From contig SHZF01000043.1 of the NCBI GenBank assembly GCA_009692425.1, positions 1 through 38,406 of the forward strand: 38,406 nt of DNA, read 5' to 3'. Below the pieces are notes generated by a model that searched no databases, was not told the DNA's origin, and saw nothing but the letters and a program-made list of their open reading frames with translations. Each line of letters starts with the position of its first letter. Position 1 is the first letter of the stretch. Origin of the DNA: Myxococcales bacterium. GTDB lineage: Bacteria; Myxococcota_A; UBA9042. Shown here one piece after another: positions 12,974 through 21,981 of this stretch. The position numbers were made by a program, and so were the translations under genes.

Positions 12974-14677
12974 TCATTTCGGCAGGTCGGCATCCATTGC
13001 ACCCGCGCGCACGGCCTGCTCGATGATGTCGCTGAGCAGTGGCGTGCCGGCGCAAGGCCGCGTGGGCACGAATGGTTGCCCGTCGAGGCAGCGGCAATCG
13101 CCGAGCGTGAGCGCAAAGTAGCCACTGCCGCCCTTCGCCAGGTAGTCCAAGGTCGCCAGGTGGTAGGTGGCGCGCGGCTTCAACGGCCGTCCGCCGACCG
13201 TGGCGTCGACGACGCGCTCGCCCGGCATCGCGATGGCGGTCGGCCGGTTGTCCTGCCACACGTAGCGCACCGGCGGCCGGGCGACATCGCAGCGGAATGA
13301 GATGCCCCACGTGACGGCACCCGCCCCATGGCGGTCGTCGCCCGCAGCGGAGCAGACGTGCTCCAGCACCGCGCGCAGTTGTGCGCCGCTCAACTCGATC
13401 ACCACGAGGCGGTTCGAAAAAGGGTGAATGGCCGCCACCTCGACGTTCGTGACCGGGCCCGCGGGGTACACGGTCGCACTGCGCAGGCCGCCGAGGTTCA
13501 TGAGGGCGCCGTCGATGGACCGGCCGGTCGCTTGGGTGGCGTGGGCGGCCATCGCGCGGGCGGTGCGCTGGGCATACGGCAGCAGGCCGGGGGGCGTCAG
13601 GTCCCACGGCACGGCGCGCGTGCCGATCGTGCGCTCCGGAACCAGCGTCGCGCGCAAGGAATCGACGGCAGCGACGATGGCAGGGTCCGCCGCCATGCCG
13701 GCGTCGATGGGGTCCAGGCGCCAGGTCGTCTGCGCGGGGTCGAAGCCGCCGGCCGCGGCGCGCACGAACTCGAGTCGGCCCAGGTGGGCAAAGCGGGCGC
13801 CCGCCTGAGTGATCCACGTCGCGCCGACCCGCCGCGCTACCGGCAGGGCGGTGTGGGAGTGCCCCCCGACGATCGCATCGATGCCGGTGACCGCGAGGGC
13901 CAAGTCTACATCCTGGCCGACGCCCAGGTGGGTGAGCGCAACCACGACGTCGGCGCCCTGGCTGCGCAACGCGGCGACTGCAGCACGCGCCGGGCCGACC
14001 AGGGGGTCCGCCGCAAAGCGCACGTCGCCGAAATCGCTGATCGTCTTGGTAGTCGGCGTCAGCAGCCCAAAGAACCCGACGCGCATCCCGCCGCACGCCA
14101 CCAGGGCCGTGGCTTCGTGCAGTCGCTCGCCCGCGCGTTTGTCGGTCGCGGGGTCGAGCGACGTACCCGCGGCGTCGAGGTTGGCCACGAGCAGTCGGTA
14201 GCGGGCAAGGCCTTCGAGCGCCGCGCGCAGGACCCTCGGCCCGCCGTCGAATTCGTGGTTGCCGAGCACGCCCAGGTCGTAGCCGGCGCGTTCGTAGAGG
14301 CGCAGCGCGGCAGCGGCGGCCGCGGCCCGATTGCCGTCGGCCCGCGCGAGGTAACGGCCCTGCAGCACGTCGCCACCCTCGACGAGGAGGACGTTGCCTG
14401 TGCCGCGCTGGGCCTGCATCCGGCGCTTTTCTCCTGCCACGCGCGCAACCGGAACGAGAAACTCCGCCAACCCGGGCGCGCCGATGCGGGGCCCGTCGAA
14501 GTTGGCCTCGCTGTCATTCGTCGTCAACAGCAGGCAACGACCTGGTTCGGGCGGTGCGCCGGCGCCGGCATGGAGCGCAGTGGCTTCGGGCACCGGATTG
14601 GCGCCACACGCGGAGGCCAAGCCAATCCCGGCGCCCAGGCATGTCGCGGCGCAGGCCAAAAGCGGGCGCGATAACAC
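12974..14677 (-). CDS. 5'-nucleotidase-like lipoprotein (metallophosphatase)
   Basis: A 567-residue lipoprotein (lipobox ending at Cys24) with the two-domain build of secreted 5'-nucleotidases. The N-terminal calcineurin-like metallophosphatase part (about 47-330) has GGD (D103), GNHEFDGG (140-147), LTHLG and GGHSHT. The C-terminal 5'-nucleotidase domain (about 345-545) has the NLGGLRS and PFSNRLVVIELSG segments. The first metal motif, normally D-x-H, reads TNDSEANF here, with Glu57 in place of His. Activity may be altered, or glutamate may serve as ligand. The start is GTG 14677, directly abutting the aldolase stop. It probably hydrolyses nucleotides or other phosphoesters at the cell surface. 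Confidence 0.88.
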   Translation of the reverse strand: MLSRPLLACAATCLGAGIGLASACGANPVPEATALHAGAGAPPEPGRCLLLTTNDSEANFDGPRIGAPGLAEFLVPVARVAGEKRRMQAQRGTGNVLLVEGGDVLQGRYLARADGNRAAAAAAALRLYERAGYDLGVLGNHEFDGGPRVLRAALEGLARYRLLVANLDAAGTSLDPATDKRAGERLHEATALVACGGMRVGFFGLLTPTTKTISDFGDVRFAADPLVGPARAAVAALRSQGADVVVALTHLGVGQDVDLALAVTGIDAIVGGHSHTALPVARRVGATWITQAGARFAHLGRLEFVRAAAGGFDPAQTTWRLDPIDAGMAADPAIVAAVDSLRATLVPERTIGTRAVPWDLTPPGLLPYAQRTARAMAAHATQATGRSIDGALMNLGGLRSATVYPAGPVTNVEVAAIHPFSNRLVVIELSGAQLRAVLEHVCSAAGDDRHGAGAVTWGISFRCDVARPPVRYVWQDNRPTAIAMPGERVVDATVGGRPLKPRATYHLATLDYLAKGGSGYFALTLGDCRCLDGQPFVPTRPCAGTPLLSDIIEQAVRAGAMDADLPK

Positions 14678-15385
14678 CTACCCGGCCTTCTTGCGCGCGT
14701 CGGGTCCCAGCCCGGCTTTGGTGCGCGCGTCGAGCAGTCGTGCGACGTCGGTGTCTGGCAGCACCCGCACCCGCCCGGCCTGCAGCGCCCGCAGTTGGAT
14801 GGTCGCGAGGTGCTCGACGAGTTCGGCCCGCAAAAAGGCCGCCTCCAGGTCGCCACCCCATGCGAGCACGCCGTGGTTTTCGAGCGTCACCGCATCGACC
14901 GCGGCGGCCGCGACTTGCAGCGCCGCGATCTGCTCTGCCGCGTTTGGGAATGCGTACGGCAGCAGCGGCACCTGGGCGCCGAGCGACACGACCGCCTCGG
15001 CCAACATGCGCGGCTCGACTGCCACCCCCGCCACCGCCAGGCCCGCGGCGCTCGGCGAGTGCGTATGCACGACGGCCATCACGTCGGGCCGCGCGGCGTA
15101 CACGGCGCGGTGCAGTTTGAGTTCGCTGAACGCGCGGCGCCCGCCCTGGACGACCTGGTCGGCGGCATCGACCACGATGAGGTCCTGCTCGGTCAGCACA
15201 CGCTTTGACAGCGCGGTCGGCGTGGCCAGCAACCGGCCAGCGGGGAGTCGCAGCGTGACGTTGCCGTCGTGATTGGCCACCCAGCCGCGGCCATGCAGTT
15301 CGTGGGCGATCGCGAGCAGTTGCCGACGCGCTTCGCCGAGCGTCGGCTCGCCGTGGTGCAGGCGGTGTAGGGGCGCAGTAGCCAT
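14678..15385 (-). CDS. Class II aldolase/adducin-family protein (fuculose-phosphate aldolase-like)
   Basis: A 235-residue zinc-dependent class II aldolase-fold protein. The zinc ligands of the family are present: VHTHSP (His107, His109) and ENHG (His171). The catalytic acid position is in FSELKLH (Glu88), and the phosphate-binding region near residue 40 reads DGNVTLR. Relatives split L-fuculose- or L-rhamnulose-phosphate into DHAP and lactaldehyde, but the substrate here cannot be read from sequence. Two EutN/CcmL microcompartment vertex genes lie directly upstream; class II aldolases are signature enzymes of one group of fucose/rhamnose microcompartments. The start ATG 15385 is weakly supported but matches the family N-terminus. 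Confidence 0.88.
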
Positions 15386-15403: not shown

Positions 15404-15694
15404 CTACGCCGGGCCGCTTGCGGGGGCGGCCGGTGTCACGGCGTCGACCACGCCGACGATCAGGCAGCGGATCGGCGACTTCGGATCCCCGAGCATCAGG
15501 CGAATGCCGCTGCCTTCGCGGTGCACCAGCACAAGGTCGCCGGGCCCGGCCTGCGCGTGGTCCACGGCCAGGAAGCTGTCGCCGTGCAGCGCGCCGAACT
15601 CATCGACCGGTTGGACCGCAAACACGATGCGCGCGGTCAGGCTGGGGTGCTTGACCGTCGCGACGACGCTGCCCAGGACGCGGCACAGGATCAC
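15404..15694 (-). CDS. EutN/CcmL-family microcompartment vertex protein (BMC-P), first
   Basis: A 96-residue protein matching the whole EutN/CcmL fold. It opens with [16 protein letters not shown], has the central [20 protein letters not shown] loop and ends in LIVGVVDAV plus a short Ala/Pro tail. BMC-P proteins form pentamers that cap the vertices of polyhedral microcompartment shells. The start is GTG 15694, overlapping the stop of the preceding vertex gene as GTGA, so the pair is translationally coupled. The aldolase follows after 18 bases. No hexamer (BMC-H) or trimer (BMC-T) shell gene is present in this window. Confidence 0.9.
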
Positions 15695-16053
15695 GTTGTC
15701 TCCTTGCTTCGACGCGCTGGGCCTGCGTTTTTCGCGACGCGGCCCGTGGCTGCGGGCGCGCCTGCGGGCGATGGCGGCACGTGGCGGTACTGCACATCGA
15801 TGGCATCGACGATGGCCACGATAGCGGCATCGACCGGCACGAACGGGTCGGGCATCGCGATGGCGGCCTCGCGCGAGGTCGTCACATGGACCAGGTCGCC
15901 AGGCCCCGCCTGCGTGACGTCGGCGGCAACCAGCGCAGTGCCGCGATCGCGCCGGTCTTCATCGACGGGCTGTACGACAAGCAGGCGAATGCCGTCGAGG
16001 CCCGGCGCCTTGACGGTCGCAACGACAGTGCCGGTCACGCGGGCGAGGAACAT
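15691..16053 (-). CDS. EutN/CcmL-family microcompartment vertex protein (BMC-P), second, with C-terminal extension
   Basis: A 120-residue BMC-P protein. Residues 1-86 carry the fold ([42 protein letters not shown]). After this comes an unusual tail of about 34 residues, Pro/Ala-rich then basic ([23 protein letters not shown]), not needed for the pentamer fold. The two vertex proteins are only moderately similar, so they are an old pair. The ATG at 16053 stands 67 bases after the TPR lipoprotein gene on the same strand, with no promoter seen in the gap, so the microcompartment genes probably belong to the AgmX operon. Confidence 0.9.
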
Positions 16054-16120: not shown

Positions 16121-17023
16121 TCAACGCGGGCGCGACTTCAGCTTGAGCAGCATCCGGGCAGCGGCATCGACCGTCGGGTCCTTGTCGCCGCGCTTCTGCA
16201 ACAAGAACGCCCGCAGGGCCTGTGTCGCCGCGTCGTATTCACCCAGTTGCAACAGCGCGGCGGCGAGGTTCACGTGCGCTTGCGGCCGCGCCTTCGGATT
16301 GCCGACGGCCGGGTCCAGCACATGGCGTGCCCGGTCCGGCCGGCCGAGGTCGAGCCATGCAACGCCGAGGGACTCCTGCAACTCCGCGGAGTCAGGCGAA
16401 AATTTCAACCCTTCTTCGAGCACGGTGCGCGCCGCTTCGAACGCGCCGACATCCGAGTAGAGCGCCGCCAGCTTCGAATACGCTGGCGCAAAGCCTGGGT
16501 CGCCGGCAATCGCGGCGCGCAAGGCCTTGTCGGCCACAGCGAGGTTGCCACCGGCTGCGGCCAACCGCGCCACGAGCAAGCGCGCCTGCGGATGGCCCGG
16601 GTCGAGCTTGAACACGCCCTCGGCAGCCGCAAGCGCATCATTCGGGTGCCCCGCCTCGGCGAGCGCCTTCGCCAGCAGCAGGTGGGCATCGACGCGGCGC
16701 GGGTCGCCCAGCGTCGCCTTGCGCAGGTGGTCCGCGGCCACCGGCCATTTCTCTTCGTGCAGCGCGATCGAACCGAGGTAGAAATGGGCGTCGCCGTCGT
16801 CGGGGTCCAGCTTGAGTACGGCCTGAAACCGCTCGCGCGCCCGGCTGTGCTCCTGGCGCTCCAGGTAGCGGATGCCCTCGTTCGACAGGGCGACGATGTC
16901 GCGCGCCGTCGAATCACAACCGGCGACTCCGACGATCACGCTGACGACGCCCAGCAAGACAGGGCCTGCAAGCACGCGACGGCACCACAACGGCAACAAC
17001 AACGGCAACCTCAACGTCCGCAT
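16121..17023 (-). CDS. TPR-repeat lipoprotein
   Basis: A 300-residue lipoprotein. The N-terminus is a long signal with a lipobox (VGVAGC) at about residue 36. From there to the end it is a chain of about seven tetratricopeptide repeats, for example LERQEHSRARERFQAVLKLDP, AHFYLGSIALHEEKWPVAA and LNLAAALLQLGEY-like units. TPR lipoproteins of this type scaffold envelope complexes. Its ATG at 17023 overlaps the TGA of the AgmX-like gene (TGATG), so the two are translated together, and a joint role in an envelope machine is likely. It may be a partner of the AgmX-like protein. Confidence 0.88.
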   Translation of the reverse strand: MRTLRLPLLLPLWCRRVLAGPVLLGVVSVIVGVAGCDSTARDIVALSNEGIRYLERQEHSRARERFQAVLKLDPDDGDAHFYLGSIALHEEKWPVAADHLRKATLGDPRRVDAHLLLAKALAEAGHPNDALAAAEGVFKLDPGHPQARLLVARLAAAGGNLAVADKALRAAIAGDPGFAPAYSKLAALYSDVGAFEAARTVLEEGLKFSPDSAELQESLGVAWLDLGRPDRARHVLDPAVGNPKARPQAHVNLAAALLQLGEYDAATQALRAFLLQKRGDKDPTVDAAARMLLKLKSRPR

Positions 17024-19017
17024 CAATGCGAGGAGAACACAAATGGATACAAGACCTTCGTCGTGCCGCCGCCTTTGGCCTGCGGGAATTTCCAGTTCTT
17101 CACGTTGTTGAGGATGCACTCCTCGACGCTCGTGTTCGCCAGGCTGGTGTCGTCGACGCGCGCGCCCAGCACGTTGCCGGTCGGCTGGATGAGGAACGCG
17201 ACCTTCACCTTGCCCGCCAGGTCGGGATTCGACTGGAGCGCTTTCTGGTAGCACGCCTTGATCGCGCCCATCTTCGTGGCGATGTAGGCCTTGATGACGG
17301 TCTTGGGCAGTTCACCTTCTGCATCCGCGACAGAACCGCCGACACGCACGATTTCCTGCTTCTTTTCCTTCAGGCCGACCTCGGGACCCTTGCCGAGATC
17401 GCCTTGCTTTTCGAGGCCGGCAATGCGCGCCCTCTCGACGTCGCCGCTCGAACCGACGCCCGGCTGGCGCGTACCTGCGGGTCCACCGGCGAGGTCGGCC
17501 AGTTTGCCTTCGGGGTCGGCCAGCACGGCGCCCTGCCCGTCCGGATTCGCCGTCCCCGCCGCACCTTCATCGGTCTCGGCGAACAGTTTCGTGCCCGGCA
17601 ATTGCGCGCCGAGGTCCTTGAGCGCCTCGTCGACGACGGCGGTCTCCTTGGCGACCTGCTCCTTGACGATTTCGACCATCTTCTCCTTCCGCTCGTCTTC
17701 GTTGAGGTTCTTGAGCGCCTGGTCGACCTTGTCCTGCTCCTTCTTGATCTCCGCCTGCTGCACCTGGGCGGGCACGATCGCCGGTGCTTCCTTTTTTTCC
17801 TCAGCCTTCTCCTCGGCCTTTTCCTCTTCGGGCGGCTTATCCTCCTTGACCTCAATGAGTTCAAGTTCGTGCAACCGCTCGTCCATCTGCTCGGCGTACG
17901 ACATCTTCATGCGGTCGCGAAAGTCGGGGCTCATGTAGCCGGCCACGATCGGCGTGACGAGCAGCACCAGCGCGGCGATCAGGCACGCGAGCAGGGTCGT
18001 CGCTTCGCGGCTCCACAGGTACAGCGGCGCCGGCGGCGGCACGGGCGTGCGCGTCAGGATAAACGTGAACTCGCTGCCGAACTGCAGCAGGGCGTGCGTA
18101 TCGGCCGCGAACACCAACGCCTTGCCACCGAGGCCTGCGGGTCGCGGCGTAGCCGTCAGATCGAGGCGCTCGCCCTGGTGCAACACGTGGCCACTGAGCC
18201 CGGGGGTATCGAGGCGCAGCGCAAAGCCACCCTTGCCGTCGGGCTCGACCAGCGTCGCCATGTCCTTGCCGCCCAGCACGTCGGGCGGCAGCGGAAACGT
18301 GCCGTTCAGGCCGACCGTGACCGGCTGCGGAGCGCCAAAGAACCGCGCAGCGAACACGTCTTCACGCCACAGCATCCGCACGTCGAGACCGAGCGGCCCG
18401 GTGAGCAGATCGCCCGGCTTCGAGGAGAGGAACTTCGCCCTGCGGGCCGACAACGTGGGCGCATCGGCGCTGCCGTCGGGTTGGCGTGTCACGACGGTGT
18501 CGGCCCGGCCGGTCGCGGTGGGCGCGTCGAACGGCAGAGTCCCAGGGCGCGATGGCAGAGTCCCAGGGCGCGGCGGCGCGGTCGAGGCCGATGGCGCAGG
18601 CATTGGCGCCGGCCGGGCCACTGGAGGCGGCGGGCTCGATGGATGCAGTGGGCTCGATGGATGCAGTGGGCTCGATGGATGCGACGGGCTGGGCTTCGGA
18701 GCCCCGATGACGGTCGTCGGTCCGTCGTCCTCGTCGGCCATGGCCTGGAAGACGGTCGTGGCGTCGTCTCCGCCCAGGCTGCGCTCACCGATGGGACTGT
18801 GCAGCCGGCGGTCGTGCCCGGCTGCGGCCAGCACGCTGTCCCCGACGATCGGCTGGTCGATCACGGTCGCCTCGCCGTTGTCACCTGCGGAATGCCCACC
18901 GCCCGGCGGCGTGCGAAGGGTTGCGGCATCCGAGTCCGCCAGACCCGACCCGCGACTGCCCACGCCGGCAGGCAAATCAGTCACGGTCTTCGAAGAGCTG
19001 CGGCTTTTCTTGGACAT
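17023..19017 (-). CDS. AgmX/PglI C-terminal domain protein (TonB-like envelope protein)
   Basis: A 664-residue modular protein. Residues 1-200 are a disordered cytoplasmic region rich in Pro/Ser with Thr-x-Val motifs (TVI 51, TTV 87 and 101, TVV 174) and two internal repeats. Residues about 205-325 look like the FHA-like/beta domain common in this family (PVTVGLNGTFPLPPDVLGG, LLQFGSEFTFIL). One membrane segment follows at about 338-361. Then come a Glu/Lys-rich coiled stretch (395-470), a flexible linker, and the C-terminal AgmX/TonB-like domain (574-664; IKACYQKALQSNP, KVAFLIQPTGNV, VEECILNNVKNWKFP). Relatives take part in gliding or other energised envelope work. It starts 3 bases after the small secreted gene and overlaps the TPR gene. 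Confidence 0.88.
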   Translation of the reverse strand: MSKKSRSSSKTVTDLPAGVGSRGSGLADSDAATLRTPPGGGHSAGDNGEATVIDQPIVGDSVLAAAGHDRRLHSPIGERSLGGDDATTVFQAMADEDDGPTTVIGAPKPSPSHPSSPLHPSSPLHPSSPPPPVARPAPMPAPSASTAPPRPGTLPSRPGTLPFDAPTATGRADTVVTRQPDGSADAPTLSARRAKFLSSKPGDLLTGPLGLDVRMLWREDVFAARFFGAPQPVTVGLNGTFPLPPDVLGGKDMATLVEPDGKGGFALRLDTPGLSGHVLHQGERLDLTATPRPAGLGGKALVFAADTHALLQFGSEFTFILTRTPVPPPAPLYLWSREATTLLACLIAALVLLVTPIVAGYMSPDFRDRMKMSYAEQMDERLHELELIEVKEDKPPEEEKAEEKAEEKKEAPAIVPAQVQQAEIKKEQDKVDQALKNLNEDERKEKMVEIVKEQVAKETAVVDEALKDLGAQLPGTKLFAETDEGAAGTANPDGQGAVLADPEGKLADLAGGPAGTRQPGVGSSGDVERARIAGLEKQGDLGKGPEVGLKEKKQEIVRVGGSVADAEGELPKTVIKAYIATKMGAIKACYQKALQSNPDLAGKVKVAFLIQPTGNVLGARVDDTSLANTSVEECILNNVKNWKFPQAKGGGTTKVLYPFVFSSH
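18534..18575. repeat. 21-bp tandem duplication inside the AgmX-like gene
   Basis: Two copies of a 21-base unit (cagagtcccagggcgcgatgg and near copy) encode RPGTLPS-RPGTLPF at residues 150-163 of the AgmX-like protein. The coding frame is kept. Confidence 0.6.
18632..18685. repeat. 18-bp tandem repeat, three units, inside the AgmX-like gene
   Basis: The unit gggctcgatggatgcagt occurs three times in a row (18632-18649, 18650-18667, 18668-18685, the last with two changes at its end). On the coding strand it gives HPSSPL three times. The first two units are identical, so the expansion is recent. Confidence 0.85.
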
Positions 19018-19522: not shown

Positions 19523-20977
19523 TCATGCGGCGGCCTCCGTCCACAAGGCGGCGGCCAGTTCGGCGGCGAGCCCAGCGGGTGGTGCGCCGTGGCTGCCGGC
19601 ACGCAGCGAGCGCACATCGAGCAGCAACCGGTCGCCGCGTACCCGCCCCAGCAAGGGCACTGGCGCAGCCAATGCCGCCAGAGCGGTCGCTTCAGCCCGG
19701 ACGCCATCGCGCGCGACGGCCAGGCAGAACGACGGCAACTCGACCAGCGGATCCGTGCCGCCGCCGGGCTCCGCCAGCGCAGGTTCCACCTCGACCGTCC
19801 ACGCGGGCCCGAGGGCGGCCCGCAGCGCGGCGGCCAAGGCGACGGCATATGCGCCGACGTCGGCCGCAGGGGCTTGCAACTGGGCCAGCGCGGGAATCTG
19901 GGCCGTGTGGCCGAGCAGGTGCATGCGCAGCACCGCTTCGAGCGCCGCCACGACGAGGTTGTCGATGCGCACGGCCCGCGCCAGCGGTTCGGCCTGCAGG
20001 CGCTCCACCCACCTGCGCGCGCCGACGACGATGCCGGCCTGCGGGCCGCCGATCAGCTTGTCGCCGCTCATGCAGACGAGGTCGGCACCGGCGGCCAACA
20101 CCTCCTGGACCGTCGGCTCGCGCGCCGCCCCGCCGCGGCCGGGCCCACCGGTTGCGAGCGCGGCCTCGACCGCGAGCGCCCCGGCACCGAGATCGACGAC
20201 GAGCGGCACGCCGGCTGCGCGCGCCAGGGCCGCGAGTTCGGCCAGCGCAGGCGTATGGACGAAGCCGATGAGGGCGAAATTCGAGCGGTGCACTTGCAGC
20301 AGTCCCGCAACCGGCCGACCGTTGGCCCGCGCAAGGTCGATCGCCTCGGCATAGTCGGCCGCGTGGGTGCGATTCGTCGTGCCGACCTCGACGAGTTCGA
20401 CGCCTGCCGCTGCGAGAATGTCCGGCACCCGAAAACCGCCGCCGATCTCGACGAGTTCCCCGCGGCTGACGACCACCGGCCTGCCGCGACACAGGGCGTG
20501 CAGGGCGAGCAGCACCGCGGCGGCCCCATTGTTGACGACGAGCGCGGCCTCGGCGCCTGTGAGCCAGCGCAACAGGGTGCCGAGGTGGGCCTGACGCGAG
20601 CCGCGGCGGCCGCTGGCGAGGTCGAGTTCGAGGTTGCAGTAGCCGCGCGCGGTGTCGGCAATGGCGGCCACGGCGGCGGCGGGCAGCGGGGCGCGCCCGG
20701 CATTCGTGTGCAACAGCACGCCCGTGCCGTTGAGGACGCGCCGCAGCGACGGCCCGTCGGCCACACGGCGCGCGCGCTCCAGTGCAGCGGCGACCGCCGC
20801 GGCCAGGGCTGTTGCGGACCCGATGGAACCGGCGGCGATCGCGGTCCGCACCTCTTCGAGCGCTGCGCGCGCACACAGCGTCCGCACCGTGTCGGGCCCT
20901 TGCAGGCCGTCGAGGGCGGCGTGGCCCTTGAGCCGGTCGACGGAAGGCAGGTGGCGGCGCCAATCCGGGGGCGTCAT
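19523..20977 (-). CDS. selA: L-seryl-tRNA(Sec) selenium transferase SelA
   Basis: A 484-residue PLP enzyme that converts seryl-tRNA(Sec) to selenocysteinyl-tRNA. It has the N-terminal HLPSVDRL element found in genuine SelA and missing from shorter SelA-like enzymes, then NGTGVLLHTNAGRAPL, ASGRRGSRQAHL, VVSRGELVEIGGGFRVPDI, EVGTTNRTHAADY and the PLP-lysine motif MSGDKLIGGPQAG (Lys307). Length is normal for the family. ATG 20977 overlaps the stop of the KamB-like gene (ATGA). selB, selD and the tRNA-Sec gene are not recognised in this window. The gene implies selenoprotein synthesis, often a Sec formate dehydrogenase, which would also need the molybdenum cofactor. Confidence 0.95.
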   Translation of the reverse strand: MTPPDWRRHLPSVDRLKGHAALDGLQGPDTVRTLCARAALEEVRTAIAAGSIGSATALAAAVAAALERARRVADGPSLRRVLNGTGVLLHTNAGRAPLPAAAVAAIADTARGYCNLELDLASGRRGSRQAHLGTLLRWLTGAEAALVVNNGAAAVLLALHALCRGRPVVVSRGELVEIGGGFRVPDILAAAGVELVEVGTTNRTHAADYAEAIDLARANGRPVAGLLQVHRSNFALIGFVHTPALAELAALARAAGVPLVVDLGAGALAVEAALATGGPGRGGAAREPTVQEVLAAGADLVCMSGDKLIGGPQAGIVVGARRWVERLQAEPLARAVRIDNLVVAALEAVLRMHLLGHTAQIPALAQLQAPAADVGAYAVALAAALRAALGPAWTVEVEPALAEPGGGTDPLVELPSFCLAVARDGVRAEATALAALAAPVPLLGRVRGDRLLLDVRSLRAGSHGAPPAGLAAELAAALWTEAAA

Positions 20978-21981
20978 TTCTGGGGCTCCGCGGCGGCAAC
21001 CAGCCCGGCGACGAGATCGACACAAGGGCCGTGCCATGCCAGCGCGCGCGCCGCCGCGACGACGCTCGCATGCACGGCGATCGCATCGGCCGCAGGCTCC
21101 GGCGCACGAAACGGACTCGTCGCCAGCGCGATCAAGGGCACGGCCCAGCGCACCGCGATGTCGATGCCCGCGCGGTCTGCCCGCACCCAGCCCGCTTCGT
21201 GCATCAAGATGTGGCCCGGCGTCTCGACCCGCACCCGGCGCGCGCCGGCCCCGGCGAGCCGGTCGAGGGCCGCGTCGGTACACGCGCCATCGAGGTCGTC
21301 CCACGCGAGCCCATCGTTCGCGGCGGGACACGTGAGCGCGCGCAGGGTCGGCAGGGCGCAGCGCACCATGTCGGCCGGCGCCGCAGCCAAGATGGCACCG
21401 ATCGCCAGCACCGTGGCATCGGCAACCGCGGGGTGGGCGGCCGCTTGCCGGTGGTAGGCACCGTCGATCGCGACCAGCAATGCCCCCGCGGCCTGCAGCG
21501 CCGCGACCGCCTGCGCCAGAGCCGCCCGGTGGGGGACGCCGCACAACTCGACCGCGCCCGGAGCGCGGGCTTCACACACGACGGCGCGTCCCAGGGCGGA
21601 GCGGAACCCGGCGTCGCCCAGCACGCGCAACCGCGCGCCGGCGGCGGCGGCGAACAGGCCGGCCGTCACGACGAGGGTACCCTTCTCGACCCAGACCGCA
21701 GGCTTCGGTTCGCCGGACCAGGCGTCGTGATCCTCGCCGTCGCGCCCGACCGAAACGAGGCCGACCGTCTCACCGCGGCGCGAAGCGATCGCGACGAGCG
21801 CGTTCAACACCGTCGTCTTGCCTGCATTCTTGCTGGCCCCGATCACAGCCACACGGTGGACGGCGGCGCCCCACACCGCGCGTTCCAGGGCGGCCAACGC
21901 CGCCGTGGCGGCTGCGGAGGCGCGCGCCGACCCGGTACCCGGGGATCCGGAGGGCGCTGCGTTCACGGGCTGGGGTTGCAT
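20974..21981 (-). CDS. KamB-like P-loop ATPase (aminomutase reactivase-type)
   Basis: A 335-residue soluble protein. After a Pro/Ala-rich lead it has Walker A GASKNAGKTT (48-57), then LVSVGRDGEDHDA (75-87), KPAVWVEKGTLVVTAGL, and LLVAIDGAYHRQAAAHP (168-184) with ADATVLAIGAILA. This order matches what I recall of KamB, the ATPase subunit that reactivates B12-dependent lysine 5,6-aminomutase in clostridia. No aminomutase genes are nearby. Instead it is coupled to selA through an ATGA overlap. Either it serves an aminomutase encoded elsewhere, or it belongs to a wider family with another job linked to SelA. The family call is from memory; the P-loop is certain. Confidence 0.72.
   Translation of the reverse strand: MQPQPVNAAPSGSPGTGSARASAAATAALAALERAVWGAAVHRVAVIGASKNAGKTTVLNALVAIASRRGETVGLVSVGRDGEDHDAWSGEPKPAVWVEKGTLVVTAGLFAAAAGARLRVLGDAGFRSALGRAVVCEARAPGAVELCGVPHRAALAQAVAALQAAGALLVAIDGAYHRQAAAHPAVADATVLAIGAILAAAPADMVRCALPTLRALTCPAANDGLAWDDLDGACTDAALDRLAGAGARRVRVETPGHILMHEAGWVRADRAGIDIAVRWAVPLIALATSPFRAPEPAADAIAVHASVVAAARALAWHGPCVDLVAGLVAAAEPQK

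What the first reader, a model, noticed from the sequence alone, without database searches (positions are those of the whole stretch)
15404..16053. Orphan pair of microcompartment vertex proteins with an aldolase in an AgmX operon
Seen: two coupled EutN/CcmL genes followed by a class II aldolase, within a same-strand run starting from the AgmX promoter; no BMC-H or BMC-T gene in 38 kb. Known: vertex proteins normally come with hexamer shell genes; class II aldolases mark fucose/rhamnose-type microcompartments. Inference: this is a satellite locus for a shell encoded elsewhere, or the pentamers have taken a shell-free envelope role alongside the AgmX and TPR proteins.
Basis: partly seen in the sequence, partly recalled or inferred. 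Interest (0 to 1): 0.65.

Follow-up and report, generated by a model that had tools for sequence, protein, structure and literature searches.

The report
Satellite of a scattered HO-type microcompartment
The two shell-corner genes and the aldolase are a split-off piece of a known bacterial protein organelle (the Haliangium ochraceum type), whose main shell and enzyme genes lie elsewhere in the same genome; the neighbouring gliding-type genes are chance company.

Summary
In detail: two translationally coupled EutN/CcmL (BMC-P) genes at 15404-16053 (-), followed by a class II aldolase. The genome does have a shell. Contig C48 holds an HO-type main locus (BMC-T, BMC-H, BMC-P1, EP-bearing aldehyde dehydrogenase, BMC-T); one BMC-T is about 70% identical to Hoch_5816. 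Further BMC-T genes lie on C87 and C67. The pair is BMC-P2 and BMC-P3 of the BMC-P triplet. Sutter et al. [quoted passage not shown] I reproduced the fission: other MAGs carry one operon T2-H-P1-AldDH-T1-P2-P3-aldolase. P2-P3-aldolase is kept in 22 of 22 genomes of the family, whereas AgmX-TPR precedes it in only 9 of 21 loci examined; the shell-free envelope reading is therefore rejected. Lineage details I did not find described: a 5'-nucleotidase added downstream, no encapsulation peptide on this aldolase (canonical in many orthologues elsewhere), and instead a tagged DERA and a second class II aldolase with an EP-like tail elsewhere in the genome. New member of a known kind.

The parts
15691..16053 (-). 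BMC-P2 (EutN/CcmL pentamer protein, 120 aa)
   Evidence: PF03319 E 3e-26; P2 clade distinct from Hoch_5814/CcmL clade
15404..15694 (-). BMC-P3 (EutN/CcmL pentamer protein, 96 aa), GTG start overlapping the P2 stop
   Evidence: PF03319 E 9e-22; P3 clade support 0.97; sequence read
14678..15385 (-). class II (FucA-fold) aldolase, metal and catalytic residues kept, no encapsulation peptide
   Evidence: PF00596 E 1.5e-41; invariant E88, H107, H109, H171; model pLDDT 93, Foldseek to FucA 1e4c and deoxyribose-phosphate aldolase 6btg; tail comparison
12974..14677 (-). 5'-nucleotidase (metallophosphatase plus 5_nucleotid_C), lipoprotein-type signal by eye; family-specific addition to the satellite
   Evidence: PF02872 E 9e-26, PF00149; downstream of the aldolase in 17 of 19 testable loci of the family
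16121..17023 (-). TPR protein with lipobox VAGC by eye; neighbour, not part of the module
   Evidence: TPR families; upstream of P2 in 9 of 21 loci of the family
17023..19017 (-). AgmX/GltG-like gliding-type protein; neighbour, not part of the module
   Evidence: NF033760 142.6 bits (cut-off 650), NF033768 99 bits (cut-off 40)

Best explanation
This is the satellite locus of a type I HO (Haliangium ochraceum-type) bacterial microcompartment, split off from the 3' half of an ancestral operon T2-H-P1-AldDH-T1-P2-P3-aldolase. P2 and P3 are pentameric vertex proteins that cap the shell built from BMC-H, BMC-T and P1 encoded on other contigs. The aldolase probably cleaves a ketose-phosphate-type substrate to DHAP and an aldehyde, which the EP-bearing, CoA-acylating aldehyde dehydrogenase of the main locus would oxidise inside the shell. 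Shown: gene identities, the main locus in the same genome, conservation and consolidated forms elsewhere, intact aldolase active-site residues. Inferred: assembly into one shell, the aldolase reaction and substrate, the direction of the fission, and co-transcription with AgmX-TPR as mere local context. In this family the aldolase lacks an encapsulation peptide, so whether it works inside the shell is open; EP-tagged deoxyribose-phosphate aldolase and a second class II aldolase with an EP-like tail may be the packaged aldehyde makers.
For: The main locus on C48 has the order T-H-P-AldDH-T; T2 is about 70% identical to Hoch_5816, P1 is 55/91 identical to Hoch_5814, and H best matches HO-5815. 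Tandem P2-P3 is present in 22 of 22 family genomes, with the aldolase next to it in all 22, and with the aldolase in 17 of 19 further class loci. Consolidated operons in the same order exist in L130, L143 and L159. The split is real: in G037 the main and satellite parts lie about 192 kb apart on one contig. Each locus gives one P2 and one P3, separate from P1. Orthologous P2-P3-linked aldolases carry C-terminal EPs in many other lineages, e.g. L077, L134, L139, L153. Published description of the same arrangement: PMC8217296. Phylum co-occurrence table 149, 3, 4, 223.
Against: The window aldolase has no EP, and neither have the others of its family (0 of 21), so cargo status is not shown here. 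No expression or structure data for P2/P3. P2 clade support is only 0.58. H. ochraceum itself was not identified in the sets searched, so its own satellite BMC-P genes were not compared directly.
Confidence: 0.93

Rival explanations
1. The pentamers have left the shell and serve the envelope together with the AgmX- and TPR-type proteins of the same run.
For: One same-strand run with short gaps; the AgmX-TPR arrangement recurs in 9 loci of the family; three distant loci (L111, L135, L158) have another AgmX/PglI-domain gene just upstream of P2.
Against: Twelve of 21 family loci keep P2-P3-aldolase without AgmX-TPR; full shell set in the same genome; fused operons with shell and AldDH elsewhere.
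Confidence: 0.03
2. P2 and P3 cap the shell, but the aldolase now works in the cytosol and is only a genomic neighbour kept from the ancestral operon; packaged aldehyde production is done by EP-tagged DERA and the second class II aldolase.
For: No EP on the aldolase in this family; EP-like N-terminus on DERA conserved in most of the family; conserved EP-like C-terminal tail on the second aldolase.
Against: The P2-P3-aldolase linkage is kept in 22 of 22 genomes; untagged enzymes can enter by binding tagged ones (own knowledge of other BMCs).
Confidence: 0.3
3. Decaying remnant of a lost microcompartment.
For: No shell gene in the 38 kb window.
Against: Intact frames, full set elsewhere in the genome, conserved across the family.
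Confidence: 0.01

Closest known systems
Type I HO BMC satellite locus (Sutter et al. 2021, PMC8217296)
   Same: Two BMC-P genes with an aldolase, away from a main locus that has its own BMC-P, BMC-H, BMC-T and AldDH.
   Different: Here a lipoprotein-type 5'-nucleotidase follows in most family members, and AgmX-TPR precedes it in about half; the paper's supplementary locus diagrams could not be read, so it is not known whether they show these.
Haliangium ochraceum model shell (Hoch_5814, 5815, 5816 and others; PDB 5v74 and related entries)
   Same: Same main-locus shell set and similar sequences.
   Different: The solved shells hold the P1-type pentamer; P2/P3 of this window are of other clades.
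PVM, GRM5 and ACI microcompartments with PF00596 aldolase
   Same: Class II aldolase beside shell genes.
   Different: Different BMC types in the published catalogue; their aldolase sits with the main locus; the window aldolase falls far below every FucA equivalog cut-off.

Membership tests
HO-type BMC, type I satellite | two BMC-P genes with an aldolase, distal from the main locus | tested here: met
   published definition
HO-type BMC, type I satellite | main HO locus (BMC-H, BMC-P, BMC-T, AldDH) in the same genome | tested here: met
   C48 locus L010
HO-type BMC, type I satellite | characteristic BMC-P triplet (three distinct BMC-P clades) | tested here: met
   the published gray and orange clade names themselves could not be assigned
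HO-type BMC, type I satellite | HO-type AldDH (nearest to SPU5/SPU7 in the published tree) | not tested
   AldDH with EP-like N-terminus and PRK15398 hit 619 bits; no tree against SPU types made
HO-type BMC, type I satellite | direct orthology to the H. ochraceum satellite genes (Hoch_4425/4426, named from memory) | not testable with these tools
   genome not found in the collections searched; no paper in the library names those tags
Fucose/rhamnose (PVM-type) compartment | L-fuculose/L-rhamnulose phosphate aldolase identity | tested here: not met
   FucA models 64-84 bits against cut-offs 250-400

The most novel reading that the evidence does not exclude
In this myxobacterial family the shell-linked aldolase has lost its encapsulation peptide and its role was taken over by, or is bridged through, a second EP-bearing class II aldolase and EP-tagged DERA; with the added 5'-nucleotidase this would be a dispersed organelle for nucleotide-derived sugar phosphates, assembled from at least six loci.
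Probability: 0.2. Interest if true: 0.5.

Novelty: new member of a known kind. Interest (0 to 1): 0.22.

Why it matters
It removes a seeming oddity (vertex proteins without a shell). The family shows a BMC spread over several loci, with a set of candidate cargo enzymes that makes the unknown function of the HO compartment testable (deoxyribose- or nucleotide-derived sugar phosphates, as Sutter et al. suggested).

Tried and rejected
Upstream conservation outside the family was sought by all-against-all comparison of upstream ORFs: nothing shared across lineages beyond small related groups. The AgmX/PglI-domain genes next to P2 in L111, L135 and L158 are another arrangement, and such domains are common in these genomes (own knowledge); treated as coincidence or one inherited event. 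A simple GC-frame gene caller was too crude and was dropped. Literature search for the H. ochraceum locus tags gave nothing. An early idea that PDB 6vop/6voq is a methylthioribulose aldolase was wrong: the entries are YgbL.

Full report
Observation. The two PF03319 genes, the class II aldolase behind them and the same-strand run from the AgmX-like gene are all there. P2 and P3 overlap by 4 nt with a strong Shine-Dalgarno before the GTG of P3. The aldolase follows after 18 nt and a 5'-nucleotidase abuts it. There is no BMC-H or BMC-T in the 38 kb window.

The genome has the shell. The window is C80 of a 4.94 Mb, 137-contig assembly. PF00936 hits lie on C48 and C67, and a third PF03319 gene lies on C48; another BMC-T is on C87:7428-8030. 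The C48 locus (L010) reads BMC-T (about 70% to Hoch_5816), BMC-H (best natural match HO-5815), BMC-P1 (55 of 91 residues identical to Hoch_5814), aldehyde dehydrogenase with an EP-like N-terminus MMDEARIQAIVAEVVKRLG, and a PduT-like BMC-T. [quoted passage not shown] Sutter et al. describe such EUT modules as satellites of HO compartments.

Already described. Sutter et al. [quoted passage not shown] That is this locus.

Tests made here. All 22 genomes of the family have the tandem P2-P3 pair, always with the aldolase next to it. Of 19 further loci in the class, 17 have the aldolase. Named MAG loci L130, L143 and L159 carry T2-H-P1-AldDH-T1-P2-P3-aldolase in one run (L159 with the aldolase about 2 kb on), the same order as main plus satellite here. 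In G037 the two parts lie about 192 kb apart on one contig, so the split is not an assembly artefact. In 379 genomes of the phylum the HO BMC-T and the P2-model BMC-P occur together in 149, alone in 3 and 4, neither in 223; some P2-model hits may be P1, so this tests linkage to the system, not P2 alone. A tree of 255 BMC-P domains gives three groups: P1 with Hoch_5814 and CcmL, P2 (101 loci, support 0.58) and P3 (98 loci, support 0.97).

Neighbours. AgmX-TPR precedes P2 in 9 of 21 family loci and not in the others. The 5'-nucleotidase follows in 17 of 19 testable family loci and in none of the other class loci. So the conserved unit is P2-P3-aldolase, with a family-specific nucleotidase; AgmX-TPR is context.

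The aldolase. It folds as FucA (pLDDT 93; 1e4c TMt 0.92; next 6btg, a deoxyribose-phosphate aldolase). Residues aligned with FucA E73, H92, H94 and H155 are invariant (FucA residue roles from own knowledge). It falls below all NCBIfam equivalog cut-offs, so its substrate is unknown. Its tail ends at [13 protein letters not shown]2-P3-linked orthologues elsewhere carry a linker and a canonical C-terminal encapsulation peptide, e.g. L134 DPLLRAIVAEELGHLLRK and L139 GELATLIREELTRALRDGR. None of the 21 family sequences does.

Other candidate cargo. The genome has a deoxyribose-phosphate aldolase with an N-terminal EP-like helix (C5:82150-83148), with that N-terminus conserved in most of the family, as Sutter et al. 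noted for some HO genomes. It also has a second class II aldolase (C31:38246-39019) whose C-terminus is a Pro-rich linker plus a short amphipathic helix, kept in the 20 loci read. EP assignments rest on sequence resemblance and helical moment only.

Conclusion. A new member of a known kind: the type I HO satellite locus. Low surprise for a specialist; the lineage details on cargo are modestly useful.

Noticed in passing
G000:C31:38246-39019 (L200): Second class II aldolase with a conserved C-terminal Pro-rich linker and EP-like helix (DERLVQAVLAALGRR-type) in the 20 family loci read.
   Followed up: partly
G000:C5:82150-83148 (L225): Deoxyribose-phosphate aldolase (DeoC) with an EP-like N-terminus, His-rich linker and a conserved Cys-rich segment, in 21 of 22 family genomes.
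   Followed up: partly
L011:8214-10254 (C67) and G000:C96:21461-22762: EutC next to a EutL-type BMC-T on C67, EutB on another contig: a dispersed ethanolamine module.
   Followed up: partly
window 19523-21981: SelA (selenocysteine synthase) preceded by a KamB-like lysine 5,6-aminomutase reactivase (192.7 bits, cut-off 210).
   Followed up: no
L111, L135, L158: A different AgmX/PglI C-terminal-domain gene lies 6-13 nt upstream of P2 in three distant Myxococcota-type loci.
   Followed up: partly
L084, L107, L143: MAGs titled Klebsiella pneumoniae or Bifidobacterium breve carry these myxobacterial-type loci; the record titles look wrong.
   Followed up: no
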